The notes under the pieces were generated by a model that was not told where the DNA came from, did not search any database, and saw nothing but the letters and a program-made list of their open reading frames with translations. This document shows, one piece after another, positions 2,401 through 26,417 of a DNA stretch of 64,000 nt (its first letter is position 1; every line of letters starts with the position of its first letter). The stretch comes from Mycteria americana (lineage: Eukaryota; Chordata; Aves; Ciconiiformes; Ciconiidae): NCBI RefSeq assembly GCF_035582795.1, contig NC_134365.1, forward strand, positions 222,163,887 through 222,227,886, in the 5' to 3' direction. The position numbers and the translations under genes were made by a program.

Positions 2401-2433
2401 CGGTGGCACCAATGACACTAGTCTTGATTTTAC

Positions 2434-3625
2434 TTAAAGGTCCTGTACAATCAGGTAGGACGAGTGAGTTGCTCCGCTATCTATTAAGAAATCTATTGTT
2501 TCGTTCCCCAGCTTTGCTGGAACAAGAGGATCGGCTGGGGAAACTTTAATATATTCCTCCGGCCCCCTGCAGGCCAATCCCATCTCTGCCAATACCTCAG
2601 CAACTGCCTCTGCTCCTCTTTCCTGGTCATTCGAAAGGCATGGGCAATCTCTTTTCCAGTGGCCCTCTCGCTTACAATACGCACACTGCTTCGCTCCGAA
2701 AGGAATATCACTATGACTTTCCCCGGTATTCCCACGATTTCCTCCTCTACCTCGAAAGCCTCCTCTAAAATTTCCTCTGCCTCCTCCTCTGCCTCTTCCT
2801 TGCCCTTCTGACAAGGTGGCCAACAAGGAAGCTTGTAATTTTGATTTCTTTTGTTTTTCCTTTTCCCGGTTATTACAACCTTTGCAAGCAGTTGATAATA
2901 ATGGGGATATCGTCATGCCATCAGCACCATCCACTTTCTGCAATTTCTTTCTAATGTCGGGTGCTGCCTGACCAATGAACAACACATTAAGAAGTCTAGA
3001 ATCATTCTCATCCGCGGGGTCCAAATTAGCCCGCTTCCCAGCTGCTTCACATAATTTTTCAGAAAAGACCCATGGGGGGTCTTCATCTCCCTGTCGTATT
3101 TCACACAGTTTTGCCCAGTTCTGTGGCTTCTGGATTCCACGCTGGATTCCACACAGAATACATTTTTGGCATTCTCTTATTCCCTGTGACCCTCCACCAG
3201 TGTTTGGATCCCACCCGGGCTCCCCCCTGGGGAGACAGGCATCTAGGTATTCTCTGTAGTAAACAAATATTCCAAAAGAGCCTGACTGTCACCCCAATTA
3301 GGATTAGGAGTCATCATTACAGTTTTATGAGGCGCAACTAACACCTCAACATCCTCATCCTTTTCCTCTGTACCATTCGTTTTTGTTTTACAGCTTGTAC
3401 AACGAGAATTGCTATTCTTTTTCTTGACCAAATAGACACCATTTTGGTAGTTAGAATCCACAAGCCCACAGTTCTTCCAACTTCCCAATTGTTTCTTAAA
3501 GCAAAGAACACATCTACATACGGTATTTCATCCCATTTTTCACTCCTTCGACAGAATAACATTAATTGTAATACGGTATTATACTTCTTAGATCCATTTT
3601 CAGGCCATTTTTCACCATCATCCAA
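2434..3625 (-). pseudogene. Class I ERV gag-protease remnant
   Basis: Broken minus-strand frames cover a matrix-like part (3338-3625), a capsid-like part (2913-3490) and a nucleocapsid plus protease part (2434-3024). Nucleocapsid carries one CCHC knuckle (C-x2-C-x4-H-x4-C) near 2640-2690, preceded by an Arg/Gly-rich stretch. Protease still shows its D-S-G-A-T active-site motif near 2470. One knuckle and a gag-pro order fit class I (gammaretrovirus-like) ERVs. Frame changes between the parts show that it no longer makes a full polyprotein. Confidence 0.83.
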
Positions 3626-3660
3626 TTGATATTGCGGCCGCCATTGATTACGATATCGTT

Positions 3661-3712
3661 TCGCTACCGATCGCTACCGATCGCTACCGATTCGCTACCG
3701 TATCGCTACCGA
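3661..3712. repeat. Short tandem repeat, ~10-bp unit TCGCTACCGA
   Basis: Five near-perfect copies of TCGCTACCGA with 0-2 bp spacers lie just upstream (in ERV orientation) of the gag remnant. The same array is in unit 2 at 27645-27696. Confidence 0.9.
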
Positions 3713-4080
3713 TAAAGCCTAATCTGATGTTTCCTACCCTATTCACAGACCCAGAACAGAATGGGGGACGTCTCCCACCACTAAAACAGGCGGTAGAAAC
3801 AGTATGCTGCTGCGGCGTACCTCTCTTCGATGCGCCTCACGCAGAGCCCAGATGGGACAAAATGTCCCCAGATGCAGGCTACTTCCCAAAGGACTTTTCC
3901 TTTTTCCCTTGATCAGGTAAGGCCTCTTTTCCAACAGCGTTGCACCGTTGTGTCGCTTACCGCCTGACTGCAGGAGAGGAGCCGATGGAGTCCCCGATCA
4001 ACAGGTCGGTGCGCGCTGCGGTTCTCCTCCCCAACATCCACATGAGGTGAATTGTGTGGTTATATTTGATTATCACAACA
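3713..4080 (-). repeat. 5' LTR/leader of the class I ERV
   Basis: On the minus strand the element starts TGTTGTGATAATC at 4080, similar to the start of the 3' LTR at 22312. It is flanked at 4081-4084 by CCGG, the 4-bp target-site duplication. The inner LTR border and the primer-binding site could not be placed, and the body of this LTR differs clearly from the 3' LTR. Confidence 0.6.
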
Positions 4081-4084
4081 CCGG

Positions 4085-4712
4085 TGGTTGCTTCCACCAT
4101 TGTAAGCACATGGCGCTTGCCTTGGCGGGTTTCTGGGAGTGGGATAGAATGGATCTGCCAGGCCTCCCCATATTTCTATTTCAGCCATCGTCCTCCGTGC
4201 CAGCGAGCCTTTAACCACTTGACTGCAGATCCACCTGCTGGTTGTTTTGATGTTCCTCAGTGGCCCGGCTCTTGGGTATGTGAGCATCTACGTGACGTAT
4301 TTTACAACCAGGTTCTCCACCCGGGCAGCAATGTCTTGCCACGCTGCGGCAGCACAGACAGGTTTGCCTCTGCGCTGCCAGTTGCTCCGCTTCCACTGCT
4401 GCAAGCACCCCCACAGAGCAATTGCACTTAAACGTGACCCCCTCACTCCACGTAGCATCAGATGCATGAGGCGTAGAGGGGACCCTCCCTTTGGACATCC
4501 AGCCCAGCACCAGCAGTCGGGGTGCCAGCAGGAGCTGTGCTTCAGGACCAACCACTTCCAAAGCAGCTCGAACCCCTTCATATGCTGCCAGTATCTCTTT
4601 CAAGTTGGAGTACAGCGGGCCTGGGATCCTCTGTATCCCCGACTCCAAAACCCTAAGGGTCAACCTCGAGTCTCCCCTGGTGCTTTCTGCCAGAGGCTCC
4701 AGGTAGGGCCAT
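4085..4712 (-). pseudogene. ERV-L pol remnant: RNase H and integrase start
   Basis: Minus-strand broken frames match the RNase H domain and the beginning of integrase of an ERV-L type element. The sequence is cut at 4080/4085 by insertion of the class I ERV and at 4712/4718 by a solo LTR. It continues the ERV-L pol remnants at 5534-6022 and 6606-6810; its far 3' part appears in the array at 20743-21735. Confidence 0.8.
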
Positions 4713-4717
4713 TCTCC

Positions 4718-5528
4718 TGTCGCAGATGGAGTGAGTGTGCACTTCACTCGTTAGAGAAAAGTAAAAAAATATAGTTTATTGATACAGAATAGGGAGTTAA
4801 CAAAGTTCAATGCGACAGTGTTTTAATAAGATTCGATGGCGAGGTGCACTTGATTATTTACTGCATAGAGGACAGGGTCAGACAAAACTGTCAGGGAGAC
4901 CCTCCCGTTGAGTCATGAGGTTCGGAAAAGATCCCCTTGCTTTCTAAACTCCTTCTCAGAGAGGAGTCTAGGTGCGGCTAGATCCAGTCCTAGTCCCAGA
5001 CTTGGTCAACGGTTTATGTCTAAAGGATTATATATGTGCGCAATCAATCCTTTATATCACTTAGCTAAGATTTCAAAGTTTAGCATGCTATTAGTCACTT
5101 ACCGAGGATCTGTTGCGGCAAGGAATCTCTCAACCTCGAGGAGTAACCTTGAGAGGCGTCCCTGCTCAAGGGGAGATCCTGGCGTGCAGCCCGCTGCCGT
5201 GCAGGAGAGCTCAAAGGGCTCTTGGGCTGCTCACTATTTATGGGGGATAAGATGACTGACTCATAGTCATATTTGCATGCCGACCACAGGTTTTAGTTTC
5301 TTGGGTGGGTGCACAACACAATAGCCCTAGGCACAACACAATAGCCCAACACAGGCTATTGTTGGGCTAATAGCCCAACCCTTAGGTTATTGTGTTGTTA
5401 TCTGTCTCCTGAATCCACTTTGAGCCGATGGTGACCAGATGCATCCATTTACAATCACCACTGGTGGTTATCACCTAAGCAGGGTTGCAGGAGATAAAGG
5501 TCGAGGGCGGGGGAAGCACACCATCACA
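4718..5528 (-). repeat. Solo LTR (tRNA-Ser-primed ERV family)
   Basis: The LTR runs TGTGATGG (at 5528, minus) to CTGCGACA (at 4718) and is flanked by the 5-bp direct repeat TCTCC at 4713-4717 and 5529-5533. An AATAAA lies near the 3' end (minus, ~4775). It interrupts the ERV-L pol gene. The LTR at ~7890-8235 belongs to the same family and is followed there by a primer-binding site, which confirms the 3' border. Confidence 0.88.
5312..5398. repeat. Inverted-repeat cluster inside the solo LTR
   Basis: Repeated copies of ACACAATAGCCC and its reverse complement (GGCTATTGTG, GGTTATTGTGTTG) form nested arms, with outer arms at ~5313-5329 and ~5381-5398. The stretch could fold into a branched hairpin in single-stranded form. 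Confidence 0.75.
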
Positions 5529-5533
5529 TCTCC

Positions 5534-6022
5534 CCGGCTGCGGTGTAGAGCACATTCTTTACATCTTGCCCTGCCTGGACTGGCCCAAGGGCTACTGCGT
5601 GAACTGTCTCCCGTTCAATGTGTTCAAAGGCTTGGCGTTGCTCAGGGCCCCACTTGAAATCGTTCTCCTTCGGGGTCACTTGATAGAGAGGGCTTGCGAT
5701 CAGACTGTAATTTGGAATATGCATTCTCCAAAAACCCACAACGCCTAAGAAAGCTGGTGTTTCCTTTTTGCTAGTTGGTGGAGACATGGCTGTTACTTTG
5801 TTGGTCACACCCACTGGGATCTGACGACGTCCACCGGGCCATTTTATTCCTAAAAACTGGATCTCCTGTGCAGGTCCCTTGACCTTACTTTGCTTTATGG
5901 CAAAACCGGCTTTCAGGAGGATTTGGACTCTTTTCTTCCCTTTCTCAAAAACTTCTTCTGCTGTATTGCCCCACGCGATGATGTCATCAATGTATTGCAG
6001 ATGTTCGGAGCTTCACCCTGTT
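5534..6022 (-). pseudogene. ERV-L pol remnant: RT palm and connection
   Basis: The minus strand encodes an RT catalytic box of YIDD type near 5980-5995, then the RT connection region (frame 5524-5814) with the LG-x-x-GF-WR-like motif. It is cut by the solo LTR at 4718-5528 on one side and the solo LTR at 6028-6600 on the other. The same pol gene resumes at 6606. Confidence 0.83.
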
Positions 6023-6027
6023 CCAGT

Positions 6028-6600
6028 TGTGCTGGTTATGGCTGGGATAGAGTTAATTTTCTTGATAGTAGCCAGTATGGGGCTATGGTTTGGATTTGTG
6101 CTGAAAACACTGTCGATAACACGCTGATGCTGTAGTTGTTGCTAAGTACTGCTTACACTGGTCACGCACTTTTCAGCTCCCCGTGCTCTGCCAGGCGCTC
6201 GGGAAGCTGGGAGGGGGCACAGCCAGGACAGTTGGTCCAAACTGCCCAAAGGGCTATTCCATACCATATGGCGTCATGCTCAGTATAGAAAGCTGGGGAA
6301 GAAGAAAGTAGAAGGAAAGAGGGGACATTGGGAGTGATGGCGTTTGTCTTCCCAAGTCACCTGATGGAGCCCTGCTTTCCTGGAGATGGCTGAACCCCTG
6401 CCTGCCCAAGGGAAGGAGGGAATGAATTCCTCGCTTTGCTTTGCTTGCGTGCGGCTTTTGCTTTCCCTATTAAACTGTCTTTATCTCAACCCACGAGTGT
6501 TCTCACTTTTACCCTTCCGATTCTCTCCCCCATCCCAGTGGGGGGGAGTGAGCGAGCGGCTGCGTGGTGCTCAGTTGCCGGCTGGGGTTAAACCACGACA
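6028..6600 (+). repeat. Solo LTR of ERV-L type, 573 bp, with 5-bp TSD
   Basis: It runs TGTGCTGG to CCACGACA and is flanked by CCAGT at 6023-6027 and 6601-6605. It splits the RT coding region of an ERV-L remnant in the opposite orientation. Its first half matches the LTR at 20301-20742 (minus strand). Confidence 0.93.
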
Positions 6601-6605
6601 CCAGT

Positions 6606-6810
6606 GCAGTCTGGATCAGTCCCTGGCAAATGGTGGGGCTGTGTTTCCACCCCTGGGGCAGTCGATTCCAGGTGGACTGGACGCCCCTCCAGGTGAAAGC
6701 AAGCTGTGGCCTGCACTCTGCTGCCAAAGGCATTGAGAAAAACGCATTAGCGATATCAGTTGTGGCACACCACTTGGCTGCCTTTGACTCCAGGTCGTGC
6801 TGAAGTTCTA
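6606..6810 (-). pseudogene. ERV-L pol remnant: RT fingers/palm
   Basis: The minus strand reads the RT motif with D-I-A-N-A-F-F and the P-Q-G-W motif that comes before the YIDD box. The reading continues beyond the solo LTR into 5534-6022. The right border is set by the CR1 at 6811. Confidence 0.83.
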
Positions 6811-7795
6811 GCATAGAATCATAGAACCATAGAACCATAGAATCATAGAATGCTTTGGATTGGAAGGGACCTTTACAGGTCCCCTAGTCCAACCCCCCTG
6901 CAAGAGCAGGGACATCTGTAACTAGATCAGGTTGCTCAGAGCCGCCCATCCAACCTGACCCTGAATGTCTCCAGGGATGGGGCCTCCACTCTGGGCAACC
7001 TCTTCCAGTGCTTCCCCAGCCTCATTGTGAAAAATTTCTTTCTTAAATCCAGTCTAAATCTGCCCTCCCTTAGTTTAAAACGATTGCACCTTGTCCTGTC
7101 ACAACAGGCCTTGCTAAAAAGTCTGTCCCCCTCTTTCCTGTAGGCCCCCTTTAAGTAATGTAAAGCTGCTATAAGGTCTCCCGCAGCCTTCTCTTCTCCA
7201 GGCTGAACAACCCCAACTCTCTCAGCCTCTCCTCGTAGGAGAGGTGCTCCAGCCCTCGCATCATTTTCGTGGCCCTCCTCTGGACTCGCTCCAACAGCTC
7301 CATGTCCTTCTTGTGCTGAGGGCTCCAGAGCTGGACGCAGCACTGCAGGCGAGGTCTCACCGGAGCAGAGCAGAGTGGCAGAATCCCCTCCCTCGACCTG
7401 CTGGCCACGCTTCTTTGGATGCAGCCCAGGATACGGTTGGCCTTCTGGGCTGCGAGCACACATCGTTGGCTCATGTCCAGCTTTTCGTCCATCAGTACCC
7501 CCTAGTCCTTTTCGGCAGGGCTGCTCTCGATCACATCATCGCCCAGCCTGTATTGAAACTGAGGATTGCCCCGACCCAGGTGTAGGACCCTGCACTTGGC
7601 CTTGCTGAACTTCATGAGGTTCACACAGGCCCACTTCTCCAGCTTGTCCAGGTCCCTCTGCATGACATCCCGTCCTTCTGGCGTGTCAACTGCACCGCTC
7701 GGCTTGGTGTCATCCGCCAACTTGCTGAGGGTGCACTCGATCTGGCTGTCAATGTCACTGATGAAAATATTGAACAGCCCTGGTCCCAGTACGGC
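6811..7795 (-). mobile_element. CR1 LINE, 5'-truncated, minus strand
   Basis: The minus-strand translation in broken frames (7836-6936) shows the C-terminal CR1 ORF2: an F-A-D-D-T-K-like box with the phenylalanine changed, the leucine/arginine-rich region, and the end motif. The 3' tail at 6811-6850 has repeated ATAGAATC/ATAGAACC units. Stops and frameshifts show that it is inactive. Confidence 0.9.
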
Positions 7796-7889
7796 TCAAA
7801 GCGGATTCGGGAGACAGAGAACGCCACCATAGCCAAGGGCTAACTTGAGCAATGTGCCCAGCTAACCACAGTGCTGGTCAATGGCCGAC

Positions 7890-8235
7890 TCAAGCCACAT
7901 TTGGAAGAAACTAAAATCGGTGGTCGGGATGCAAATATGACTATGAGTCAATCATCTCACCCCCATAACTGGAGAGCAGCCCGAGAGCCCTTTGAGCAAT
8001 CCTGCACGGCACCGGGCCGCACGACAGCATCTCCCCTTGAGTAGGGAGGCCTCCCAAGGTTACGCCTGCTGCTGAGATCCCTCCCTCCTCGATATGGAGA
8101 CATTCCTTGCCACAACAGGTCCTTGGTAAGTGACTAATGGCTTGCTAAACTTTGTGAGCTTCGCTAGGGCTATATCTTAGGTTGATTGTGCACATATAAT
8201 CCTTTAGAGTGAAGTGAACCTCTCCATCTGCGACA
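7890..8235 (+). repeat. LTR of tRNA-Ser-primed ERV, 5'-truncated
   Basis: This is homologous on the plus strand to the solo LTR at 4718-5528 and ends with the same CTCCATCTGCGACA. Homology starts near 7890; the 7796-7889 stretch between CR1 and LTR holds nothing I recognise. It is followed by a primer-binding site. Confidence 0.82.
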
Positions 8236-8238
8236 AAC

Positions 8239-8256
8239 TGGCGTAGTTGGCGGGAT
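8239..8256 (+). other. Retroviral primer-binding site, tRNA-Ser-like
   Basis: TGGCGTAGTTGGCGGGAT lies 3 bp after the LTR end. It matches, at 16 of 18 positions by memory, the complement of the 3' end of vertebrate tRNA-Ser(AGA). A search against avian tRNA genes would settle the primer. Confidence 0.65.
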
Positions 8257-8545
8257 GGCAAGGAGTATCACCGATTATTTTCGGAGGCATGGAGTGAACC
8301 TGAGGCCCAGCTTCTCAGAAGAGTGGGCTCGTGACAACTGGCATCGTTGGGAAGCCGTTGAAGAGCACCTAGAGGTAACCAGGGGCCGTACAAAGGATGG
8401 CAAAGGGCAAGGAGTTATCTGCAAGAGGCTAGGCACCTGTTTAGAAGCTGCATATCAAGAAAGGGAGAACAGAAATAGAGAGGAGCAGGACCTAGAGAAA
8501 GAAACAGAAGGTAGAAAGGCAGCTGAGTTGCTACTGTCTTTATAA
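8255..8545 (+). pseudogene. gag-like leader frame of the tRNA-Ser-primed ERV
   Basis: A 96-codon frame starts with ATG inside the primer-binding site, which is closer than the usual leader. The peptide is charged, with two Trp residues near residues 24-31 and a Glu/Arg-rich coiled-coil-like end. By position it should be the start of gag. I see no diagnostic motif. Past the stop at 8545 the Glu/Lys-rich coding character goes on to about 8640, and the element is cut before the hexamer array at ~8740. Confidence 0.45.
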
Positions 8546-8766
8546 ACCAAACAAGTGCAGAAAGAGTTACAGGAGGAAGAGGAGAAAGGGCAAAAGTTGG
8601 GAGAAAAGGTCAAGACGATGCTTATGCAGGGACACCACTTGTCACTGATCTCCATGTGGACATTGAGCCATAGACCACCACCCTCTGGATACGAACATCC
8701 ACCCAATTCCTTATCCAATAAACACTTGTTCAGCTGTCCTTGGCTGGAGGGCCAGGTGTGCGGGCC

Positions 8767-9112
8767 CTTCTTCTCCTTCTCCTTCTCCTTCTCCTTCTCC
8801 TTCTCCTTCTCCTTCTCCTTCTCCTTCTCCTTCGCCTTCGCCTTCTCCTTCTCCTTCTCCTTCGCCTTCTCCTTCGCCTTCGCCTTCGCCTTCGCCTTCT
8901 CCTTCTCCTTCTCCTTCGCCTTCGCCTTCGCCTTCTCCTTCTCCTTCTCCTTCTCCTTCTCCTTCTCCTTCTCCTTCTCCTTCTCCTTCGCCTTCGCCTT
9001 CGCCTTCTCCTTCTCCTTCTCCTTCTCCTTCGCCTTCGCCTTCGCCTTCTCCTTCGCCTTCGCCTTCGCCTTCGCCTTCTCCTTCTCCTTCTCCTTCTCC
9101 TTCTCCTTCTCC
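8767..9112. repeat. Hexamer array (TTCTCC)n with TTCGCC variants, 346 bp
   Basis: A nearly pure pyrimidine array on the plus strand in which TTCTCC and TTCGCC hexamers alternate in blocks. All six frames stay open, giving low-complexity frames such as (EK/AK)n, (GE)n, (SF/AF)n, poly-R and poly-L. It starts just after a short sequence shared by gene copies A and B (TTGGCTGGAGGGCCAGGTGT) and ends ~285 bp before the TATA box of copy A. Unit 2 has one more hexamer. Confidence 0.95.
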
Positions 9113-9261
9113 CCCTCGCTGAAGCACCCCCAGCTCCCCCATCCTGCAGACCATGGGCTTCCAGCAGCTGCCATCCCTGACTTCCAGGGGGACATTCCAG
9201 GGGGACACCCGTCCTGAGCCGCTCGCACCCACCCGTACCAGCCAGGGAAGGGCGTGGGAGG

Positions 9262-9388
9262 CCACTGGGTGTCACAATGGGGGTCCCTGCCTGCCCCACG
9301 GGGTCACAATGGGGGTCCTAGCCAGCCCCACGATGTCACAAAGGGGGTCCCTGCCTGCCCCACGGGGTCACAAAGGGGGGCGTGCCTG
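9262..9388. repeat. Promoter-proximal tandem repeat, ~33-bp unit, ~3.8 copies
   Basis: Units contain [16 protein letters not shown] followed by GCCTGCCCCACGG. They lie directly upstream of the TATA box of copy A. Copy B has only two units at the same place (18657-18718), so the number of units changes between paralogs. Confidence 0.85.
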
Positions 9389-9398
9389 CCTGCCGTAC

Positions 9399-9404
9399 TA
9401 TAAA
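9399..9404 (+). promoter_or_regulatory. TATA box of gene copy A
   Basis: TATAAA followed by GGAGGG lies 209 bp before the start codon. Transcription should begin near 9430. The same box and 370 bp of flanking sequence are conserved in copy B. Confidence 0.7.
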
Positions 9405-9607
9405 GGAGGGTGCAGCTCCCCGCGGGAGCAGGCAGCAGGCGGTGGGCACCGCAGTCTGGCCTCATCTCGGCAGACTGCAGCCTCAGCCTCTGCCACACCA
9501 GCAGTGTTGGGGGTCCCGTCACTGCCCACCCAGGAGGTCCCTGGGGATCCGCGCGGCGGGCCTCTGCTGCTGACCCGGAGTGCCGCAGCTGCACCGCAGC
9601 CGCTGCC

Positions 9608-11262
9608 ATGGGGCACTCCAACGTCCCAAGCCTGGCTGAGCTGCTCCCGCTCCTGATGCTGGTGCTGCAGCTCAGCCTGGTCTCTGCCATACTGCGGGCC
9701 AAGCGGCTCAAGGTAGGTGACCGCTGGACCGCACCACACTGCACCGCACTGCACCGCAGCGTGGAGTGTGGTGGGGTGGAGTGGTGTAGTGTGGGGTGGT
9801 GTAGGGTGGTGTAGCGTAGTGTGGATGGGGGGCTGCGGCGTGGGGGGCTGCGGCGTGGGGCTGGGAGCTGCTCCCGTCTCAGCCAGCTCCTGGGGGTCCT
9901 GCAGAAATGGTGGAAGAAGTCGAAGCGTCGGACGAGGACGGCGAGAGCCCGGCAGGAGGACCACACTGCGTCTGCTCCCTCAGCAGGTTCTTCGCCAGCA
10001 GATGGAGGAGTGGAGAAGGCCAGGCAGACCCTGGAGATGTGGTGAGTGCTGGGGGAGACCCCCAGGTTCTGCCCCAGATCCTCACCCTGTACCCTGACCC
10101 TGCCCACGCTGGGCAGCCCTGCCCGCCGGCCGAGGACGGGGTACTGCCCGTGGGTCCCACTGGTGGGGCCGGGGTGCAGCGGGGTCTCTTCCCTCTTCTC
10201 CTCTGCAGGGCGAGCACAGAGGTGTCGAGCAGGGAGCGCCTGTCCCCGCGGGCCCCGCTGGCCTCCATGGACTCCCTGGGCTCCCTGGCCTCGTCTTCCG
10301 TGAGCTCCCTTTACTCCTTCCCGGAGCCCTGGCCCGGTGCGATGGCGGAGCTGGCAGCACTCAACCGCTCGGGACCCCCCCAGTCCCCCAAGGCTGAGAA
10401 GGGGCCGGCGGGGGACTCGGAGCCAGCCCTTGGCCACGACACCCCACTGGAGCTGCCAGCGGGGACAGAGCGGGAACGGGTCTCTGAGGACCGCGGGGAC
10501 AGGGTGCAGAGCCCCGTGGACATGGAGCCGACCCCCGGCAGTCCCCCAGCCATGGCCACGGTCAAGGGGGAGCTCGTCCTCGAGCTCATCCGCATTCTCC
10601 GGGCCACCCAGGCGGTGCACGAGCAGCAATGTGAGCTGCTGCGGGCAGCGCTGGCCCAGTGGCGGGGGGCGGCGGGGGCCTGCAGTGGGACCCTCCCCGG
10701 GGAACTCTCCCTCCCCCCCACCAGGATGGAGGCGCAGGGGCAGCTGGGGGCCAGAGTGTGTCCCCAGTGCCTTGGCGTGGAGCTGCCGGGGGCGGATGTG
10801 GCCATGGAGAAGGACAAGGACACGGGAGCAGACCAAAGCAGCTCCATGGAGATGGAGAGCAGCAGCCCCACTGCGACAGGCAGCAGCCGCCCTATGGAAT
10901 CGGGCAGGAGCAGCCCTGACGACCTGGGCAGGAGAAGCCCAAAGCAAGTGAAGAGGAGCAGCCCCATGGAGCCAGAAAGCAGCAGCTCCATGGGGCCAGG
11001 CAGGAGCAGCCCCACTGCTCTGGGCAGGAGCACCCTGGCAGAGCCCAGCCCACGGCGACGGGTGCCCATGGGCAGGACTGGTGGCCGGGCGTCCCCAGGG
11101 CCGTGCAGGGCAGGACGGTGCCTGTGTGAGGGCTGCGCCCGGCTCTGGAGCTGCCTGAAGACCTGGTGGAGACGCCGCTGCCGGCCCCGCCACGTTCACT
11201 TCTGCAAGCCCCCGTGGTGGCAGCGCTGGTCCCACAAGTCCAACGGGGTCCCCTACCACTGA
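9608..11262 (+). CDS. Uncharacterised membrane-anchored, Ser/Pro/Arg-rich protein, copy A (431 aa)
   Basis: I do not recognise this gene. The exon model is 9608-9712, 9905-10041 and 10209-11262, with GTAGGT and GTGAGT donors, CAG acceptors and matching phases (1296 nt). Residues 8-27 are hydrophobic and are followed at once by a Lys/Arg-rich stretch (KWWKKSKRR), which predicts a signal anchor with the C terminus in the cytosol; a cleaved signal peptide is also possible. Exon 3 has a Ser-rich block, a conserved helix (ELVLELIR to ALAQW), nine 8-residue S/P/G/R repeats, and a C terminus rich in Trp, Cys and Arg. The second exon fuses the two short exons seen in copies B and C, with leftover intron read through in frame. 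Promoter and exon 1 match copy B, the body matches C, and the 3' flank matches D. Whether it is expressed cannot be seen from sequence. Confidence 0.72.
10837..11052 (+). repeat. 24-bp coding tandem repeat, nine units (copy A)
   Basis: Nine consecutive 8-codon units have the consensus S-S-P-x-x-x-G-R. The frame and the 24-bp period are kept throughout. The same nine units occur in copy C; copy D keeps about three. Confidence 0.9.
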
Positions 11263-11324
11263 GCAGCTGGGGGTCGCGGGGCTGGGAACCCCCCTGGGGC
11301 ACCCCTCCATCTGAAATGTTAAAA

Positions 11325-11330
11325 ATTAAA
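11325..11330 (+). terminator. Polyadenylation signal ATTAAA of copy A
   Basis: ATTAAA lies 63 bp after the stop codon, followed by a T-rich stretch (TGTTTTCTCTGTCTTTGG). It is conserved at 35315 (copy A2), 53622 (copy C) and 56643 (copy D). The near-absence of further 3' UTR suggests a very short one. Confidence 0.75.
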
Positions 11331-11504
11331 TGTTTTCTCTGTCTTTGGTGCCGGGCTTCATCTACCCATCCCGCGGCTGGGGTGCGACCCACTCACTGCC
11401 CAATCCCTTACAGGGACGAGCTGGCACAGGGCACCACTGGCACCCAGAAAACTGGGGGGGGGGTGGGGGTGTCTAGTCCCCCAGTGGGTGTGCTGGTGTC
11501 TGGG

Positions 11505-11860
11505 GGCCTGGGTGGGCTGGAGAAATGGCCCAGCAGGAACCTCGTGAAGTTCAAGCAGTGCCAAGTCCTGCCCCTGGGGAGGAACAAGCCCAGGCACCAG
11601 CACAGAGCTGAGGGCTCAGGGGGATCTCATCCGTGGGATCTCATCCACACCTGCGGGGAGGGTGCCAAGGGGACGGAGCCAGGCTCTTCCCAGTGGTGCC
11701 CAGTGCCAGGACCAGAGCCCATGGGCACACGCTGGAACACAGGAGGGTCCCTCTGCACAGCAGGAAACACTTTTCACTGGGAGGGTGGCCCAGCCCTGGC
11801 CCAGGTTGCCCAGGTGGAGTCTCCATCCTTGGAGGTACTCAAAACCCCCTGGACACGGTC
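11505..11860 (+). mobile_element. Old CR1 fragment downstream of copy A
   Basis: The translation still resembles the CR1 ORF2 C terminus, with a leucine-glycine-arginine-asparagine box and a PSLEV end motif, but has many stops. About 500 bp here, up to ~12018, are almost identical to 56840-57340 downstream of copy D. Confidence 0.7.
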
Positions 11861-12383
11861 CTGGGCCACCAGCTCTGGAGCTTGGACCCGATGGAGCCCA
11901 GAGGTGCCTCCAGCCTCAGCAGTCTGGTCCTGTCTCTGCCCCAACACCGAGCGGGTGCCTCCCTCCCCGGGCAGAGGCAGCTCAGGGCCCCGGGGCAGGT
12001 CAGAGGCCCCTTCCCACCACCAGCCCCAGCATGTCCTCGGTCCTGTCCCTGAGCACGGCCGGAGGGGCTGAGCCCCCAGACACTGCAGGCACCCAGCCCA
12101 GGCCTGTGCTGCGCTCGTGTGCTGGCACCTGTCCCCCTGGTCACCCCCCGCGAGGACCCGCCACCCCCTCAAGGCCGCCGTGACCGTGGGGTGAGGCTTG
12201 GGAGCAGAGCTGCAGGGCCAGAGTGTTAAAGGAGAAGCCGCTGCCCGAGCACTCACACACCGTTCAGCAGTCGCACACACACCACCCAAGACTTTACCTG
12301 CTGGCACCGCAGTCCCTTCGCAGCGGCAGCTCCACGGAGCTGACGGGTGCCCCTTTTCGACTCCTCGCTCACACACACACGCT
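11861..12383. other. No gene seen
   Basis: GC-rich sequence without a supported frame. The first ~160 bp continue the block shared with the copy D flank. Short (AC)n runs lie at 12250-12375. Confidence 0.6.
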
Positions 12384-12905
12384 CATCAAGTCCAACCATA
12401 AACCTAACACTACCAAGCCCACCACTACACCATGTCCCTGAGCACCTCATCCAAATGTCCTTTAAATACCTCCAGGGATGGCGACTCAACCACTTCCCTG
12501 GGCAGCCTCTTCCAGTGCTTGATAACCCTTTCAGTGAAGTAAAATTTCCTAATATCCAGTCTAAACCTCCCCTGGTGCAACTTGAGGCCATTTCCTCTTG
12601 TCCTATCACTTGTCACCTGGGAGAAGAGACCGACCCCACCTCTCTACAGCCTCCTTTCAGGCAGCTGTAGAGAGCGATGAGGTCTCCCCTCAGCCTCCTT
12701 TTCTCCAGGCTGAACAACCCCAGCTCCCTCAGCCGCTCCTCATAAGACTTCTGCTCCAGACCCTTCCCCAGCTCCGTTGCCCTTCTCTGGACACGCTCCA
12801 GCCCCTCAATGTCTCTCTTGTGGTGGGGGGGCCCAACACTGAACACAGCATTCGAGGTGCGGCCTCACCAGCGCCGAGTACAGGGGGACGATCACCACAG
12901 GGGCA
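12384..12905 (-). mobile_element. CR1 LINE, 5'-truncated, minus strand
   Basis: Minus-strand frames (12425-12846) encode the CR1 ORF2 C terminus of the same subfamily as 23125-24191, with frameshifts. The 3' end lies at 12384. The right end runs directly into LTR sequence at ~12917. Confidence 0.88.
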
Positions 12906-12916
12906 CGATCACAGGG

Positions 12917-13323
12917 GATACGACGTACACCAGACAAATTTATTGGTACAGCGGTGAAACCAGCTCGAGCCGAGTGTCTCCGGAGAGGGACCCAGAACAA
13001 CGAAATCCCTGGGTAATTAGACCCTTACAGTCTAAATTCCCCTCCCCTCAGGAGACAGTCCGGACCAATAGTAGTATCAGGGTCTGGGGTCTTCCCGTTC
13101 TTCATTGGGCCCTTTCCTTGTGGGCCGATTCTTCTCTTCTCTCTCAGATTGCAGCTTCTGCTGAGGTTGAAGCCTCCTTATCTTTCTGGTTTGCACCGGT
13201 TTCAGGGGCCTTCCTTCATGTAGCCAAGTCAAAGTTCAGTGCACGGTCGGCGGATCCAGGTGCCAGTTCTTGGGGCCTAAGGCTTCAGCGAGCCTTGATG
13301 CTAATGCTAAAGTGACGACTACA
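12917..13323 (-). repeat. Class I ERV 3' LTR (U5 end missing)
   Basis: The LTR starts TGTAGTCG at 13323 on the minus strand, directly after a purine-rich tract (GCAAAGGGAGGACAG, the polypurine tract). An AATAAA sits near 12930. It is ~98-99% identical to the LTR at 51476-51952, which carries ~65 bp more at its U5 end. Here the LTR is joined to CR1 sequence instead. Confidence 0.8.
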
Positions 13324-13496
13324 ACTGTCCTCCCTTTGCTTTTTTTTAATCAAGCATTCCTACTTAATATGTCAGACAAAGGTCAGACAACGCCCGCAAA
13401 TTCTTTCAAGGCAAACAATTAACCACCGTGTTCGCATAGATAATATGATTACAAGTAACACATGAAGGCAAAGCACAATACTGTTATCATGGGATG

Positions 13497-14305
13497 TCAC
13501 GTGGTTGGAGAGACAGTTGTCAATACTGGCATAGTAGTTTCACAAGTCACATTGACAAATCCCAAATTACCATTTATAACACACTGGGTCAATCGTTCAC
13601 CTCCATCCAACGGGCCGGTCTTAGCTGGGATATACGTCCCTGGTAGGGCCAAATGTCTCCCAAAGAGAATTTCTGCTGCTGTCAGCCCTATGAGTTGTTG
13701 CGGGGCATTTTGCACATCCCGCAGGGCTAAGTGCAGTGCGTCCGGCCACTTCCAACCTGTGTTTGTAGATTTTCTTCCTACCTTTTCCTTTAAGGTTCTG
13801 TTTGAGCTTCCTACCTGTCCTGAGGATTGTGCGTGATAGGGAGTGTGCAAGTTCCTCTCTATACCTAGCGACTTATCTAGTTGACCGATTGTATTTGCTG
13901 TAAAATGGGCACCCCTGTCTGATTCAATTCATTTGGGAACTCCGTATCTGGGTATAATTTCCTTCAATAATGCTTTTATTACTCCTCCTGTCTCTGCTTT
14001 TCTTGTGGGGAATCTTTCTACCCAACCTGACACTTGATGAACTATAACTAGTAAGTGTTTGTATCTACTGGCGGATGGCATATCTGCGTCATCTATTTGT
14101 AATTGCTGAAAAGGGAAATAGGCCCATGGTCGTCCCCCTGACTCTGAACTCCACTTCATACTTGAAAACTTTTGGCAGGGTGGGCAGCTACTGCTGATCC
14201 TCTTTGCGGCGGCATTATTCCTGGTGCTGTCCATCTTTTTTGTACCTGGTTAGCCACTGCCTCTGCTCCTCCATGACCTTGGTCATGAAACCACCTAGCC
14301 ATGGT
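13497..14305 (-). pseudogene. Class I ERV integrase remnant
   Basis: Minus-strand frames at 14156-14434, 13929-14234 and 13497-13850 cover the zinc-binding N terminus, the core and the C-terminal part of a gammaretrovirus-like integrase. Frames shift between the pieces and the zinc motif is incomplete. It is cut near 14310 by the CR1 that carries the long ORF2. The LTR at 12917-13323 is its 3' LTR. The 13324-13496 stretch has no recognisable env. Confidence 0.8.
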
Positions 14306-14313
14306 CATTTGAC

Positions 14314-16899
14314 GTGCCATGGTTGGAGGGAGCGGCTGACAGCGAGGACAGTCGGCCTGAGTCCTCGAGATGCGCGGGGTACGCTTGGGCACAGCCGAAG
14401 TCGAGCGGAGTTGAGCCAGGGGATATTGAGGCAACGGGAGCCAAGAGGGAAACTCCAGTGAAATGCCTCAAAGCACGCAAGGGGTGTTCTTCTATGAAGG
14501 AGGCACGGACGACAGCCCAGCTGAAGTGCCTCTACACCAATGCACGCAGCATGGGTAACAAGCAGGAGGAGTTGGAAGCCATTGTACATCAGGAAAACTA
14601 TGATATGGTGGCCATCACGGAAACGTGGTGGGGTGACTCGCACAACTGGAGTGCGGCGCTGGATGGCTATAAGCTCTTCAGGAGGGATAGGCGAGGCAGG
14701 AGAGGTGGTGGGGTAGCCCTATACGTCAGGGAGAGTCTGGATAGTTTAGAGCTCGATGATGGTGATGATAGGGTGGAGTGCCTATGGGTCAGAATCAGGG
14801 GGAAGGCCAACAAGGCAGATATTGTGGTGGGAGTCTGTTACAGACCACCCAACCAGGATGAGGAGACAGATGAACTATTCTATAAGCAGCTGGGAGAAGC
14901 CTCACGATCGCTAGCCCTTGTTCTTGTGGGGGACTTCAACCTGCCAGATGTCTGCTGGAAATACAATACAGCAGAGAGGAAACAGTCCAGGAGGTTCCTG
15001 GAGCGTGTGGCAGATAACTTCCTGACGCAGCTGGTGAGTGAGCCAACGAGGGAAGGTGCCGCGCTGGACCTCTTGTTCACCAACAGAGAAGGACTTGTGA
15101 GCCATGTGATGGTTGGAGGCTGTCTTGGGCAGAGCGATCACGAAATGATAGAGTTTTTGATACGTGGAGAAGCGGCGAGGGGGGTCGGCAAAACTGCCAC
15201 CTTAGACTTCCGGAGGGCGGACTTCAGCCTGTTTAGGAGACTGGTCGAGAGAGTCCCCTGGGAGGCAGCCCTAATGGGCAAAGGGGTCCAGGAAGGCTTG
15301 ACATTCCTTAAGGAGGAAGTCCTAAAGGCACAAGAGCGGGCTGTCCCCAGGTGCCGAAAGACGAGCCGGCGGGGAAGAAGACCGGCCTGGCTGACTAGAG
15401 AGCTCTGGCTCGAACTGAGGAGAAAGAGGAGAGTCTACGACCTCTGGAAGAAGGGGCGGGCAACTCAGGAGGACTACAAAGGTGTAGCGAGGCTGTGCAG
15501 GGAGAAAATTAGAAGGGCCAAAGCTGAGCTAGAGCTCAGTCTGGCTGCTGCTATAAAAGACAACAAAACCCACTTCTTCAAATACATTAGCAGCAAAAGG
15601 AGAGCTCAGGAGAATCTCCAGCCCCTAGTAGATGGGGGAGGAAACACAGTGACCAAGGATGAGGAAAAGGCTGAGGTACTTAATGCCTTCTTTGCCTCAG
15701 TCTTTATTAGCAGGGCCGAATGTTCTACGGGTACCCAGCCCCTGGAGTTGGAAGATAGGGATGGGGACCAGACTGGAGCCCCCATAATCCAGGGGGAAAT
15801 GGTGAGTGACCTGCTGCACCACTTAGACACTCACAAGTCTATGGGGCCTGATGAGATCCACCCGAGAGTGTTGAAGGAGCTGGCAGATGTGCTCACCAAG
15901 CCCCTTTCCATCATTTACCAGCAGTCCTGGCTAACTGGGGAAGTCCCTGCTGACTGGAGATTAGCGAATGTGACGCCCATCTTCAAGAAGGGCCGGAAGG
16001 AGGACCCGGGGAACTACAGGCCTGTCAGCCTGACCTCGGTGCCGGGGAACCTGATGGAGCAGATCATCCTGAGTGCTATCACACGGCATGTAGAGAATAA
16101 CCAAGGGATCAAGCCCAGCCAGCATGGGTTCAGGAAAGGCAGGTCCTGCTTGACCAACCTGATCTCCTTCTATGGCAAGGTGACCCGCCTAGTAGATGAG
16201 GGAAAGGCTGTGGATGTTGTCTATCTAGACTTCAGTAAAGCCTTCGACACAGTCTCCCACAGCATTCTCCTGGAGAAACTGGCTGCTCATGGCTTGGACG
16301 GGTGTACTCTTCGCTGGGTAAAGAACTGGCTGGACGGCCGGGCCCAAAGAGTGGTGGTGAATGGAGTTTACTCCGGTTGGCGGCCGGTCACAAGCGGTGT
16401 TCCCCAGGGCTCGGTGTTGGGGCCAGTTCTGTTTAACATCTTTATCAATGATCTGGACGAAGGGATCGAGTGCACTCTCAGTAAGTTTGCAGACGACACC
16501 AAGTTGTGTGGGAGTGTTGATCTGCTGGAGGGTAGGCAGGCTCTGCAGAGGGACCTGGACAGGCTGGATCGATGGGCTGGGGTGAATTGTATGAGGTTTA
16601 ACAAGGCCAAGTGCAAGGTCCTGCACTTGGGCCACAGCAACCCCATGCAACGCTACAGGCTTGGGGAAGAGTGGCTGGAAAGCTGCCTGGCAGAGAAGGA
16701 CCTGGGGGTGTTGGTTGACAGCCGCCTGAATATGAGCCAGCAGTGTGCCCAGGCGGCCAAGAAGGCCAATGGCATCCTGGCCTGTATCAAAAATAGCGTG
16801 GCCAGCAGGACTAGGGAAGTGATTGTGCCCCTGTACTCGGCACTGGTGTCCGAGGGAAGTGGCTGCCTTAGCTGCCAAGCCACTCTCCATGATATTTGA
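14314..16899 (+). CDS. CR1 LINE ORF2: endonuclease-reverse transcriptase (861 codons open)
   Basis: Open without a stop for 861 codons. The natural start is unclear; a better one may be the ATG at ~14491. An apurinic-type endonuclease domain spans about residues 70-290, with the ITETWW and SDHE motifs. The reverse transcriptase domain spans about residues 480-830, with [24 protein letters not shown] and the catalytic FADD box at about residue 723. It would nick target DNA and copy CR1 RNA in the nucleus. The last ~120 residues of a normal CR1 ORF2 are missing: at ~16848 the sequence jumps into a different CR1. The element inserted into a class I ERV integrase. The long open frame suggests fairly recent insertion, but without its own 3' end it should not be mobile. 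Confidence 0.88.
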
Positions 16900-17563
16900 A
16901 AAGTCATGGCAGTCAGGCGAAGTCCCTGGAGCCTGGAAGAAGGGAAACATTGTGCCCATCTTCAAAAAGGGTAGAAAGGAGGACCCTGGGAACTACTGAC
17001 CTGTCAGCCTCACCTCTGTGCCTGGGAAGGGCACGGAACAGATCCTCCTAGAAGCTATGCTACAGCACATGGAGGACAGGGAGGTGATTCGAGACAGCCA
17101 ACATGGCTTTGCCAAGGGCAAGTCCCGCCTGGCCAACCGAGTGGCTTTCTGTGAGGGAGTTGCCACATCAGAGGACAAGGGAAAAGCAATGGATGTCATC
17201 TGTCTGGCCTTCTGTAAAGCCTTTGACACGCCCCCCCACAAGATCCTCCTCTCTACATTGGAGAGATAGGGATTTGATGGGTGGACTGCTCAGTGGAGAA
17301 GGAATTGGTTGGATGGTCGCATCCGGAGGGTAGCGGTCAACAGCTCAATGTCCAGATGGAGATCAGTGACAAGTGGTGTCCCTCAGGGGTCCGTACTGGG
17401 ACCAGGGCTGTTCAATATTTTCATCAGTGACATTGACAGCCAGATCGAGTGCACCCCCAGCAAGTTTGCAGATGACAGCGAGCTGAGCGGTGCAGTTGAC
17501 ACGCCAGAAGGACGGGATGTCATGCAGAGGGACCTGGACAAGCTGGAGAAGTGGGCCTGTGTG
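16850..17563 (+). mobile_element. Second CR1 fragment joined to the first
   Basis: The RT region of another CR1 subfamily starts before the FKKGRKEDP motif and runs to just after the F-A-D-D box (FADDSEL). It has stops at 16999 and 17269 and further frameshifts. It is in the same orientation as the ORF2 copy and starts within its C-terminal coding region, earlier in the element, so the pair is not a simple continuation. Confidence 0.85.
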
Positions 17564-17784
17564 AAGCCCAGGTTCTCCTCCGCGGGGGGGTCCTGCTGCC
17601 TCCTGCGGGCTGGGGGGGCAGGAGGCCGGGGGACACAGCTGACCCCGGCGGGCCGAGGGGACGCTGCAGCCTGCCTGGCATCGCGCTGCCCGCTCAGACG
17701 GGCAGGCTTTTCCAACACAGCCCTCACTCGGGCCTGGCCTGGCGTCGCCCAGCTCGGCTGCGGGTGCCGACCTCTCAGAAACCT
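17564..17784. other. No gene seen
   Basis: GC-rich unique-looking sequence. I recognise nothing in it. Confidence 0.5.
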
Positions 17785-17945
17785 CTTGGGGCTTTGGTGC
17801 TTTATTTCCCTTGACTAATTAACCTGTCTTTGTCTCCAGACCAGAGTTTCCTTTATTTCTCGCATTTGCCCTCTCAATTCTCCCCCATCGCACTGCGGGG
17901 AGCGAGCGGCTGGGGGGGCTCGGCTGCTGGCTGGGGTCAAGCAGC
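17785..17945 (+). repeat. ERV-L LTR, 3' fragment
   Basis: Resembles the last ~150 bp of the solo LTR at 6028-6600 (CTCAATTCTCCCCCATC and the GAGCGAGCGGCTG block). Its end is eroded. The 17946-18045 stretch after it has no recognisable feature. Confidence 0.6.
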
Positions 17946-18079
17946 CAGGGCCTGGGCTCAGCAGGGAGGGACCTGGGGTGGGTTTGGGCAGGAGCTGGGC
18001 TCAGCATCGAGGGGATCCTCTTTAATTTCAAAAGTTCTCGCCAGTGCTGCCGTTGGCTGGAGGGCCAGGTGTGGAGGCC

Positions 18080-18504
18080 CTTCTCCTTCTCCTTCATCTT
18101 CATCTTCTCCTTCTCCTTTTCCTCATTCTCCTTCTCCTCATTTTTTCTCCCTTTCTCTCCTGTCGTTGTCTTTCTACTTCTGCTTCTGCTTCTGCTTCTT
18201 CTTTTCCTTCTTCTTCTCCCCCTCCCCCTACCCCTCCCCCTTCCCTTCCCCATCCTCCTTCTCCTTCTCCTTCTCCTTCTCCTTCTCCTTCTCCTTCTCC
18301 TTCTCCTTCTCCTTCTCCTTCTCCTTCTCCTTCTCCTTCTCCATCTCCTTCTCCTTCTCCTTCTCTTTCCCCTTTCCCTTCCCCCTCCCCCTTCCCCTTC
18401 CCCTTCCCCTTCCCCTTCCCCTTCTCCTTCTCCTTCTCCTTCTCCTTCTCCTTCTCCTTCTCCTTCTCCTTCTCCTTCTCCTTCTCCTTCTCCTTCTCCT
18501 TCTC
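18080..18504. repeat. Pyrimidine hexamer array upstream of copy B
   Basis: (CTTCTC)n with CTTCCC, TTCATC and TTTTCC variants. It is homologous to the array upstream of copy A (same left neighbour TTGGCTGGAGGGCCAGGTGT and same right neighbour CCCCTCGCTGAAGCACCCCCAG) but of different composition, without the TTCGCC blocks. Confidence 0.92.
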
Positions 18505-18720
18505 CCCCTCGCTGAAGCACCCCCAGGTCCCCCGTCCTGCAGACCATGGGCTTCCAGCAGCTGCCACCCCTGATTTCCAGGGGGACATCCCAGTCCCTCA
18601 TGAGCCCCTCGCGTCTGCCCGTACCAGCTGGGGAAGGGCGTGGGAGGCCACTGCGTGTCACAAAGGGGGTCCCTGCCTGCCCCACGGGGTCACAAAGGGG
18701 GGCGTGCCTGCCTGCCGTAC

Positions 18721-18726
18721 TATAAA
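18721..18726 (+). promoter_or_regulatory. TATA box of gene copy B
   Basis: TATAAA in the same context as copy A, 209 bp before the start codon. Two upstream 33-bp units are present instead of almost four. Confidence 0.7.
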
Positions 18727-18929
18727 GGAGGGTGCAGCTCCCCGCGGGAGCAGGCAGCAGGCGGTGGGCACCGCAGTCTGGCCTCATCTCGGCAGACTGC
18801 AGCCTCAGCCTCTGCCACACCAGCAGTGTTGGGGGTCCCGTCACTGCCCACCCAGGAGGTCCCTGGGGATCCGCGCGGCGGGCCTCTGCTGCTGACCCGG
18901 AGTGCCGCAGCTGCACCGCAGCCGCTGCC

Positions 18930-20300: not shown

Positions 20301-20742
20301 AAAAAAAATACAATAATAATAATAATAATAAATTGTAATGAAAAGGAAAACAACAAGACAGCGAGAGAGGAACAAAAGCCAGAACAAAACCCAACTGATG
20401 CAACCTCTCACCAGGTGCCGACCGACACCCAGCCAGTCCCCGAGCAGCGATCTCTGTCCCCTGGCCAACTCCCCCCAGTTTCTATACTGAGCGTGACATC
20501 GCATGGTATGGAATAGCCCTTGGGCCAGTTTGGATCAACTCTCTCGGCTGTGCCCCCTCCCAGCTTCTTGTGCGCCCGGCAGAGCACGGGGAGCTGAAAA
20601 GTCCTTGACCAGTGTAAGCAGTACTTAGCAACAACTACAGCATCAGCGTGTTACCAACATTATTCTCATACTAAATCCAAAGCACAGCACTATACCAGCT
20701 ACTGGGAAGAAAATTAACTCTATCCCAGCCAGAACCAGGACA
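20301..20742 (-). repeat. ERV-L 3' LTR, truncated at gene copy B
   Basis: On the minus strand the LTR starts TGTCCTGGTTCTGG at 20742, right after a purine-rich tract (AAGGGGTGGGCGC). It runs 442 bp to a (TAA)n/A-rich stretch (20301-20331) and then stops at the copy B coding sequence. The start matches the solo LTR at 6028; the 3' third is missing. Confidence 0.85.
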
Positions 20743-21731: not shown

Positions 21732-21735
21732 CCGG

Positions 21736-22312: not shown

Positions 22313-22324
22313 ATTCCCCCCTTT

Positions 22325-23118: not shown

Positions 23119-23124
23119 AACCAG

Positions 23125-24191: not shown

Positions 24192-24197
24192 AACCAG

Positions 24198-26384: not shown

Positions 26385-26417
26385 CGGTGGCACCAATGAC
26401 ACTAGTCTTGATTTTAC

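What the first reader, a model, noticed from the sequence alone, without database searches (positions are those of the whole stretch)
9608..11262. Unrecognised, locally expanded gene family next to CHRNA10
Six copies in the window share a TATA promoter, a short exon with a hydrophobic anchor, a very basic exon, a conserved helix and a Trp/Cys/Arg-rich end. Splice sites and phases are kept in A, B and C, and substitutions respect the frame of a 350-codon exon, which suggests selection. I can name no known family for it.
Basis: partly seen in the sequence, partly recalled or inferred. Interest (0 to 1): 0.8.

Follow-up and report, generated by a model that had tools for sequence, protein, structure and literature searches.

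The report
Undescribed, fast-evolving bird gene family
A real but undescribed gene family, so far found only in birds, has been copied several times beside a nicotinic receptor gene; most copies here are broken, but a short stretch of the protein has stayed nearly unchanged between distantly related birds, so it probably does something that matters.

Summary
The gene is real. Copy A (9608-11262, +) has a TATA box, three GT-AG exons with phases 0 and 2, a 431-codon frame and an ATTAAA signal. Three protein searches found 18 relatives. All 11 that carry a species name are birds (7 species: crane, eagle, two gulls, bustard, hummingbird, ptarmigan), annotated as "uncharacterized" or "early nodulin-75-like". 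No convincing Pfam or solved-structure match and no paper turned up. A galliform-like record joins exon 3 to exon-2-type sequence at the same phase-2 junction, which suggests a spliced transcript. Constraint is concentrated in a core: 21 of 31 invariant exon-3 residues lie in residues 96-131, and dN/dS in residues 82-140 is 0.22-0.30, against 0.45-1.2 in the next 100 residues.

A and B recur because a 24-kb block is duplicated (99.9% identical). Only A and its twin are complete: B has a frameshift and a replaced 3' end, C lacks promoter and exon 1, D is a pseudogene. B and C keep an extra intron that A lost. The array lies between an ART gene and CHRNA10.

Best guess at function: a signal-anchored membrane protein whose disordered cytosolic tail presents a conserved binding motif. 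Topology is inferred; expression by tissue is unknown.

The parts
8770..9112 (.). (CTTCTC)n array, 57 copies, upstream of copy A; similar arrays stand upstream of A', B and B'
   Evidence: for the others
9399..9404 (+). TATAAA box of copy A; also at 33389 (A'), 18721 (B) and 42711 (B')
   Evidence: the 300 nt 9334-9633 match at 100% in all four (family D13)
9608..9712 (+). Copy A exon 1: 35 codons, hydrophobic anchor ELLPLLMLVLQLSLVSAIL; donor AAG|GTAGGT, phase 0
9905..10041 (+). Copy A exon 2: very basic (KKWWKKSKRRTRTARAR); fused exon that lost 93 nt of an ancestral intron; ends TG|GTGAGT, phase 2
10209..11262 (+). Copy A exon 3 to stop: conserved core, linker, helix, GRSSP-type repeats, Trp/Cys/Arg end
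10210..10386 (+). Conserved core (residues 82-140; motif APLASMDSLGSL...SLYSFPEPWPGAMAELAAL)
   Evidence: (21 invariant columns in residues 96-131)
10552..10686 (+). Region of the predicted helix (residues 196-240)
   Evidence: helix in relative P0001; dN/dS about 1
11325..11330 (+). ATTAAA polyadenylation-type signal, 62 nt after the stop
33598..35252 (+). Copy A' (twin of A in the 24-kb duplication): exons 33598-33702, 33895-34031, 34199-35252; coding sequence identical to A
18930..20300 (+). Copy B: E1 18930-19034, E2a 19243-19306, intron 112 nt, E2b 19419-19473, E3 19640-20300; 8-nt frameshifting deletion, 3' end replaced by unrelated A/T-rich sequence
42920..44290 (+). Copy B' (twin of B, offset 23990)
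52109..53559 (+). Copy C: E2a 52109-52172, intron 111 nt (an acceptor 3 nt earlier is possible), E2b 52284-52338, E3 52506-53559 with intact frame; no exon 1 and no TATA block
55522..56580 (+). Copy D: pseudogene (E2b trace and E3 with several frameshifts); a further E3 fragment lies at 55194-55353
1..47973 (.). Two head-to-tail 24-kb units (1-23984 and 23985-47973), 99.9% identical, each with one A and one B
58628..59260 (-). Part of the neighbouring nicotinic receptor gene (alpha-7/9/10 type; CHRNA10 by its place)
   Evidence: best scores alpha-7, alpha-9 next; synteny

Best explanation
This is a bird protein-coding gene family at the ART-CHRNA10 interval: fast-evolving, prone to tandem copying, and represented here by one intact gene type (A and its twin) plus decayed copies. 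The protein most likely inserts its N-terminal hydrophobic helix into a membrane as an uncleaved signal anchor. The strongly basic stretch right behind it would keep the rest in the cytosol. The long tail is predicted to be disordered, carries proline-directed GRSSP-type repeats, and presents a nearly invariant motif (APLASMDSLGSL...SLYSFPEPWPGAMAELAAL) as a docking site. A helix and a C-terminal Cys/Trp/Arg-rich helix give two more contacts, possibly to a second membrane or to partners. It would thus work as a membrane-anchored tether or scaffold. Shown: gene structure, the family in birds, the constrained core, and the decay of B and D. Inferred: expression in this bird, topology, docking and tethering. 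The gene-family part I hold at about 0.9, the topology at about 0.6, the scaffold role at about 0.4.
For: Relatives in 7 named birds at E down to 2e-147 in the single-sequence search. Crane P0001, a gene model covering the whole query, has the same anchor-basic-core-helix-end layout. Spliced-looking galliform-like record P0010 against read-through P0012/P0013. Invariants clustered: 21 of 31 exon-3 invariants in 36 of 350 residues, 3.2 expected, hypergeometric 6e-17 (the stretch was picked after seeing the alignment). Two core blocks are 29 of 31 identical to ptarmigan. Core dN/dS 0.22-0.30, codon-blind null P 0.009 for A-B, 0.0115 for B-D, 0.10 for A-D. A hydrophobic segment with 19-residue mean hydropathy 1.55-2.14 and net charge +4 to +11 in the next 25 residues in 7 of the 8 proteins that begin at or near exon 1. 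Three confident helices and low confidence elsewhere. Mouse Art1 overlaps Chrna10, leaving no room for such a gene between them.
Against: No RNA data for this bird. A-C differences are mostly amino-acid changing (13 of 16; dN/dS 1.45, interval 0.57-5.3); the C-terminal half of A-D gives 1.76 (interval 0.92-4.6; not outside the null) and the predicted helix about 1, so large parts evolve almost freely. For A-B the whole first half of exon 3 is only marginally below its null (0.64, P 0.06). Ptarmigan's hydrophobic stretch is weak (1.55) and gull P0018 starts without one (0.13; perhaps a wrong start). The (V/I/A)SA motif at the end of the hydrophobic stretch would also suit signal-peptidase cleavage in 4 of the 5 proteins. 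Model confidence is low overall (pLDDT 52.8).
Confidence: 0.6

Rival explanations
1. Secreted cationic protein: the N-terminal stretch is a cleaved signal peptide, and the basic N-terminus and Cys/Trp/Arg-rich end act outside the cell, for instance on membranes.
For: (V/I/A)-S-A at the end of the hydrophobic stretch in A, P0001, P0008 and P0011/P0016 (P0016); Cys-bearing C-terminus; net charge +11 to +16 in A, P0001 and P0008.
Against: Net charge +9 to +11 directly behind the hydrophobic stretch in four of the five proteins, with -1 to +1 in front of it in all five, argues against translocation of the chain (positive-inside rule, recalled). Ptarmigan P0009 lacks the SA motif. Galliform members are acidic overall (-9 for P0009, -30 for the partial P0010).
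Confidence: 0.15
2. No functional gene in this bird: the family is real in birds, but all copies here are relics, with A open only by youth or chance.
For: B and D are broken, C lacks its 5' end. Recent copies differ in a near-neutral way (nt/aa differences of the five non-identical full-length E3 copies to A: 16/12, 7/5, 15/11, 17/12, 3/3). Frames are often open by chance here.
Against: A keeps TATA box, start, both splice junctions, 431 codons and a poly(A)-type signal. All 7 full-length exon-3 copies found in the genome are stop-free without gaps against A, though with so few changes that is weak. Core constraint in A-B.
Confidence: 0.15
3. Strongly diverged member of a known family of anchored, disordered proteins (mitoguardin-like, or testis SPATA31/SPEM-like).
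For: Same broad layout (recalled); one of the proteins scanned has a sub-threshold Mitoguardin match, E 0.52 (P0008).
Against: No Pfam family matches more than 1 of 16 members at E 1 or better; no solved chain below E 1.4; a core search with 70 candidates found only this family.
Confidence: 0.1
4. The copy number is partly an assembly artefact: the 24-kb twin units and the palindromic contig C105 are haplotypes or false duplications of one array.
For: Units differ by only 15 mismatches in 24 kb. C105 holds further A, C, D and B types in an inverted layout, its longest matches to the window 99.4-99.7% identical.
Against: A third B unit lies upstream on the same contig. The differences between C105 and the window exceed those between the tandem units. 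Bustard and hummingbird also have several entries. This bears on number, not on the existence of the family.
Confidence: 0.35

Closest known systems
Uncharacterized bird gene models (Grus japonensis 'early nodulin-75-like', Lagopus muta LOC125703030, Heliangelus exortis, Chlamydotis macqueenii VSU04_014070/005885, Larus michahellis LOC141737456, Chroicocephalus ridibundus LOC134514842, Morphnus guianensis ACIBXB_003549)
   Same: Same family: shared core, and in the most complete ones the same anchor, basic stretch and C-terminal end
   Different: Automatic annotations without description; the crane name looks like a low-complexity label. Galliform members are acidic and rich in Glu-Pro repeats; bustard and hummingbird ones carry extra Ser-rich blocks; several models are partial
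Mitoguardin (MIGA, PF10265)
   Same: N-terminal membrane segment followed by basic and Ser-rich sequence (layout, recalled)
   Different: Sub-threshold match in 1 of 16 members only
SPATA31 / SPEM-type mammalian testis membrane proteins
   Same: General layout only: N-terminal membrane segment, basic stretch, long disordered tail (recalled)
   Different: No Pfam match to them; no expression data here
Plant early nodulin-75 (ENOD2)
   Same: Only the crane label; a repetitive low-complexity region may explain it
   Different: No Pfam match for the crane protein; the 10 papers listed with that name are on plants and insects by title, none on birds

Membership tests
Avian family around P0001/P0008/P0009 | Core APLASMDSLGSL...SLYSFPEPWPGAMAELAAL | tested here: met
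   A matches; 29 of 31 residues in the two blocks equal to ptarmigan
Avian family around P0001/P0008/P0009 | N-terminal hydrophobic segment followed by basic stretch | tested here: met
   7 of 8 proteins measured, A included; not in gull P0018, which starts short
Avian family around P0001/P0008/P0009 | Phase-2 junction into exon 3 | tested here: met
   A, B, C in the window; galliform-like P0010 against P0012/P0013 at the protein level
Avian family around P0001/P0008/P0009 | Location on the largest chromosome, between ART and CHRNA10 | tested here: inconclusive
   Shown for this genome. Relatives in 6 of 7 named species lie on contigs of 195-224 Mb, but their neighbours could not be read
Mitoguardin (PF10265) | Match to the family profile above its cut-off | tested here: not met
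   Best E 0.52, 9.6 bits against cut-off 25, 1 of 16 members
SPATA31 / SPEM-type proteins | Match to their Pfam profiles | tested here: not met
   No such family listed for A and five relatives at E up to 5, nor for the 18 relatives at E up to 1
SPATA31 / SPEM-type proteins | Testis expression | not testable with these tools
   No expression data held
Early nodulin-75 (ENOD2) | Match to a plant nodulin or extensin-like profile | tested here: not met
   P0001 has no Pfam match at E up to 5

The most novel reading that the evidence does not exclude
A bird-restricted gene family that arose in the ART-CHRNA10 interval, has no relatives outside birds, and is under a repeated cycle of local amplification, exchange and decay around one nearly immutable short motif, as expected of a protein in a reproductive or host-parasite conflict.
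Probability: 0.3. Interest if true: 0.7.

Novelty: new variant of a known kind. Interest (0 to 1): 0.45.

Why it matters
If the family is bird-restricted, it is a clean case of a gene gained beside a conserved pair (Art1 and Chrna10 overlap in mouse) that then kept one motif since galliforms and the other birds parted while the rest drifted. It supplies a motif to search with, a synteny anchor to date its origin in crocodiles and turtles, and a warning that automatic names such as "early nodulin-75-like" hide a coherent family. The array is also a natural example of recent tandem duplication, intron loss by deletion and pseudogene formation side by side.

Tried and rejected
Rejected: chance open frame in GC-rich DNA (relatives in other birds); retroviral or LINE origin (introns, own promoter, no such Pfam domain in A or the relatives; the retroelement reading frames are separate); plant nodulin relation (annotation label only). 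Pfam Gp5_trimer_C matches P0002 at E 0.0008 but with 20 bits against a cut-off of 30.9, over its 8-residue repeats at 247-301; the other weak matches are Ctr (A), Miga, CCDC53, UL17, RR_TM4-6, DUF7607 and Myelin_MBP, one member each; none reaches a cut-off where one is shown.

Led nowhere: solved-structure search; paper searches for locus names (0 papers), for the crane and its label (listing), for 'nodulin-75-like' (10 papers, none on birds by title), for the motif letters (0 papers), for synteny (listing; passages of two papers) and for hidden bird genes (listing only). The bacterial promoter scan does not bear on this gene. A fold search was not run because the model has only isolated helices. 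The antisense frame of 673 codons (9304-11325) was tested only by dN/dS: the three antisense frames of the exon-3 half give 0.74-1.10 for A-B, the two other sense frames 0.90 and 1.12, the coding frame 0.64. I take it as a by-product of GC-rich coding sequence, though 0 of 1000 simulations reached 673, so it is not fully explained.

Not done: a search of the own genome with a diverged relative, to find paralogues elsewhere; a codon alignment across birds (I had no DNA of other birds). Rows left out: the 7-row profile holds A and 6 of the 11 relatives then known; the folded alignment holds 16 of 18 relatives (P0005 and P0017 left out); the tree holds 14 of 18 relatives (P0004, P0007, P0011, P0013 left out) and three window copies.

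Full report
What is in the sequence. The window is from a bird-sized assembly (1.35 Gb; window at C1:222163887-222227886) whose contig C1 is 223.06 Mb long, so the locus lies within 1 Mb of a contig end. That it is a bird is inferred from the relatives. In GC-rich DNA a long frame is weak evidence: a run of 350 codons or more in some frame turned up in 4.9% of 2000 simulations of exon 3, and the fixed frame stayed open in 0.4%.

The copies. Units 1-23984 and 23985-47973 are a tandem duplication with 15 mismatches and 7 gap positions; A and B each occur twice for that reason, and the coding sequences of A and A' are identical. Within the window the TATA block and exon 1 are found in A, A', B and B' only. 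From 9334 to the end of exon 1, A and B differ at 2 of 379 bases, while they differ by 99 changes in 183 codons of exon 3. So the shared promoter reflects recent exchange or copying, not long conservation. B has an 8-nt deletion and its 3' end is replaced; its two earlier indels in exon 3, of 12 and 9 nt, keep the frame. C has an intact exon 3 but no exon 1. D has several frameshifts. Outside the window there are a third B unit upstream and further A, C, D and B types on contig C105, whose layout is palindromic. All 7 full-length exon-3 copies found (A, A', C and four on C105) are free of internal stops and of gaps against A.

An extra intron. A lacks 93 nt there, including the donor, and reads through the remainder in frame (the 93 is my subtraction). 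Hummingbird isoforms P0011 and P0017 differ by a stretch at this place, which fits optional retention of the intron. The ancestral gene therefore probably had four coding exons.

Relatives. Three searches of about 5.8 billion proteins gave 11, 18 and 10 proteins, 18 different ones in all. Eleven carry a species name: crane, crested eagle, yellow-legged gull, black-headed gull, MacQueen's bustard (two proteins), a hummingbird (four entries, apparently three genes) and rock ptarmigan (common names recalled). Seven have none. In six of the seven named species the protein lies on a contig of 195-224 Mb; in the eagle on one of 31.7 Mb. The first two searches scored only the 7992 candidates sharing most words, so remote relatives could have been missed; the third, confined to residues 84-140, had 70 candidates and found nothing outside the family at E up to 5. 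A tree of 17 rows groups the two bustard proteins together and the three hummingbird rows together, and puts window B with P0005 from another, unnamed source. So copies seem to have multiplied separately in several lineages, and the A/B split looks older than the split from P0005's species. P0005 also shares B's altered 3' end: B's DNA from 20260, read in another frame, gives VDPGPERSSLLLLRKKIQ and a stop; P0005 ends VDPGPDRSSLLLLRKKIQ.

Transcription. Galliform-like P0012 and P0013 read into exon 3 from sequence that looks intronic (...SSISSC|RTSPRERS), whereas P0010 joins the same exon 3 (383 of 388 residues matching P0012) to PSPTWEL, which resembles the ptarmigan model (SPTWEQ|R). I read this as a spliced transcript at the same phase-2 junction; the phase is inferred from the protein. 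The meaning of the source label 'lgn' is not given by the tool, and the tissue is unknown.

Selection. Of 32 invariant columns in seven proteins, 21 fall in residues 96-131. Three of the seven lack the N-terminus, so the fair count is within exon 3: 21 of 31 in 36 of 350 residues, 3.2 expected, hypergeometric 6e-17, the stretch having been chosen after seeing the alignment. Between copies in the window, dN/dS in residues 82-140 is 0.26 (A-B), 0.29 (B-C), 0.22 (A-D) and 0.30 (C-D); in residues 141-195 it is 0.45-0.69, in the helix region 0.87-1.18, and in the C-terminal half 1.76 for A-D and 1.86 for C-D, which is not outside the null for A-D. A codon-blind placement of the same changes gives P 0.009 for A-B, 0.10 for A-D and 0.0115 for B-D in the core; 0.50, 0.13 and 0.047 in the linker; 0.51, 0.35 and 0.21 in the helix. 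For the whole 5' half of exon 3 the CpG-aware null gives P 0.06 (A-B), 0.004 (B-C), 0.09 (A-D) and 0.02 (C-D). Recent copies differ near-neutrally (A-C 1.45, interval 0.57-5.3). The pairs share branches and are not independent, D is a pseudogene, and no correction for several tests was made.

Place. An ART gene lies at C1:222154610-222155272 (-), then the array, then the receptor gene (best scores alpha-7, alpha-9 next; called CHRNA10 by its place), then NUP98 at C1:222243954-222244560 (-). In mouse, Nup98 lies 2.5 kb upstream of Chrna10, and Art1 overlaps its exons 4 and 5 (passage in PMC5613126). So the array sits between two genes that touch in mouse.

How it may work. In five proteins (A, P0001, P0008, P0016, P0009) the hydrophobic stretch (mean hydropathy 1.55-2.14 over 19 residues) is followed by net charge +4 to +11 in 25 residues, with -1 to +1 in front. 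P0011 and P0017 agree (1.64, +9); gull P0018 starts without a hydrophobic stretch (0.13). By the positive-inside rule (recalled) this favours an uncleaved anchor with the tail in the cytosol. AlphaFold on crane P0001 with 16 sequences gives helices 9-49, 191-234, 470-494 and 506-514 and mostly low confidence elsewhere, which I read as disorder (mean pLDDT 52.8, pTM 0.27). The near-invariant motif in such a setting suggests a docking site, and the 24-nt repeat encodes Ser-Pro-bearing units that vary in number between species. The scaffold or tether role is inference.

Comparison with known families. No Pfam family matched more than 1 of 16 members at E 1 or better; the two relatives not in that set have none, and the one match under E 0.001 is below its cut-off and lies on repeats. 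No solved chain matched below E 1.4, and no paper in the held library carried three of the locus names or the motif letters. Resemblance in layout to mitoguardins or to mammalian testis membrane proteins is recalled and not supported by sequence. I therefore call it an undescribed family of a familiar general kind (anchored, disordered, fast-evolving, locally amplified), with automatic entries already in public databases.

Noticed in passing
1-47973: Two 24-kb tandem units with 15 mismatches; a partial third (B part, matching 17628-23984) lies directly upstream on C1. CR1-type repeats (recognised by eye) stand near the unit borders and could have mediated the duplication.
   Followed up: partly
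L009-L015 (contig C105, 66,772 bases): Unplaced contig holding the same family in an inverted-repeat (palindromic) layout, longest matches to the window 99.4-99.7% identical; another haplotype, further array or assembly fold-back.
   Followed up: partly
9304-11325, strand -: A single antisense frame of 673 codons runs across all of copy A including introns; 0 of 1000 order-1 simulations reached this length. It is interrupted in B.
   Followed up: partly
8770-9112 and upstream of B, A', B': Long CTTCTC-type purine/pyrimidine array roughly 200-300 nt upstream of the TATA box of each promoter-bearing copy.
   Followed up: no
9334-9712 against 18656-19034: A and B differ at 2 of 379 bases around promoter and exon 1 but strongly in exon 3, a sign of gene conversion or recombination.
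   Followed up: partly
55194-55353: An exon-3 C-terminal fragment (81% identical) upstream of D in very GC-rich DNA, a seventh partial copy.
   Followed up: no
14299-16899 (+), 2434-3288 (-), 48181-49755 (-): Long retroelement frames: a CR1-like endonuclease/reverse transcriptase frame of 866 codons and retroviral-type gag- and pol-like fragments (recognised by eye).
   Followed up: no
P0011 against P0017 (hummingbird): Two annotated isoforms differ by a stretch at the place of the extra phase-1 intron, suggesting optional intron retention in frame.
   Followed up: partly
20260-20316 (B) against P0005: Copy B's altered 3' end is shared, in another frame, with a protein from another unnamed source, so the truncated B type is older than that split.
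   Followed up: partly
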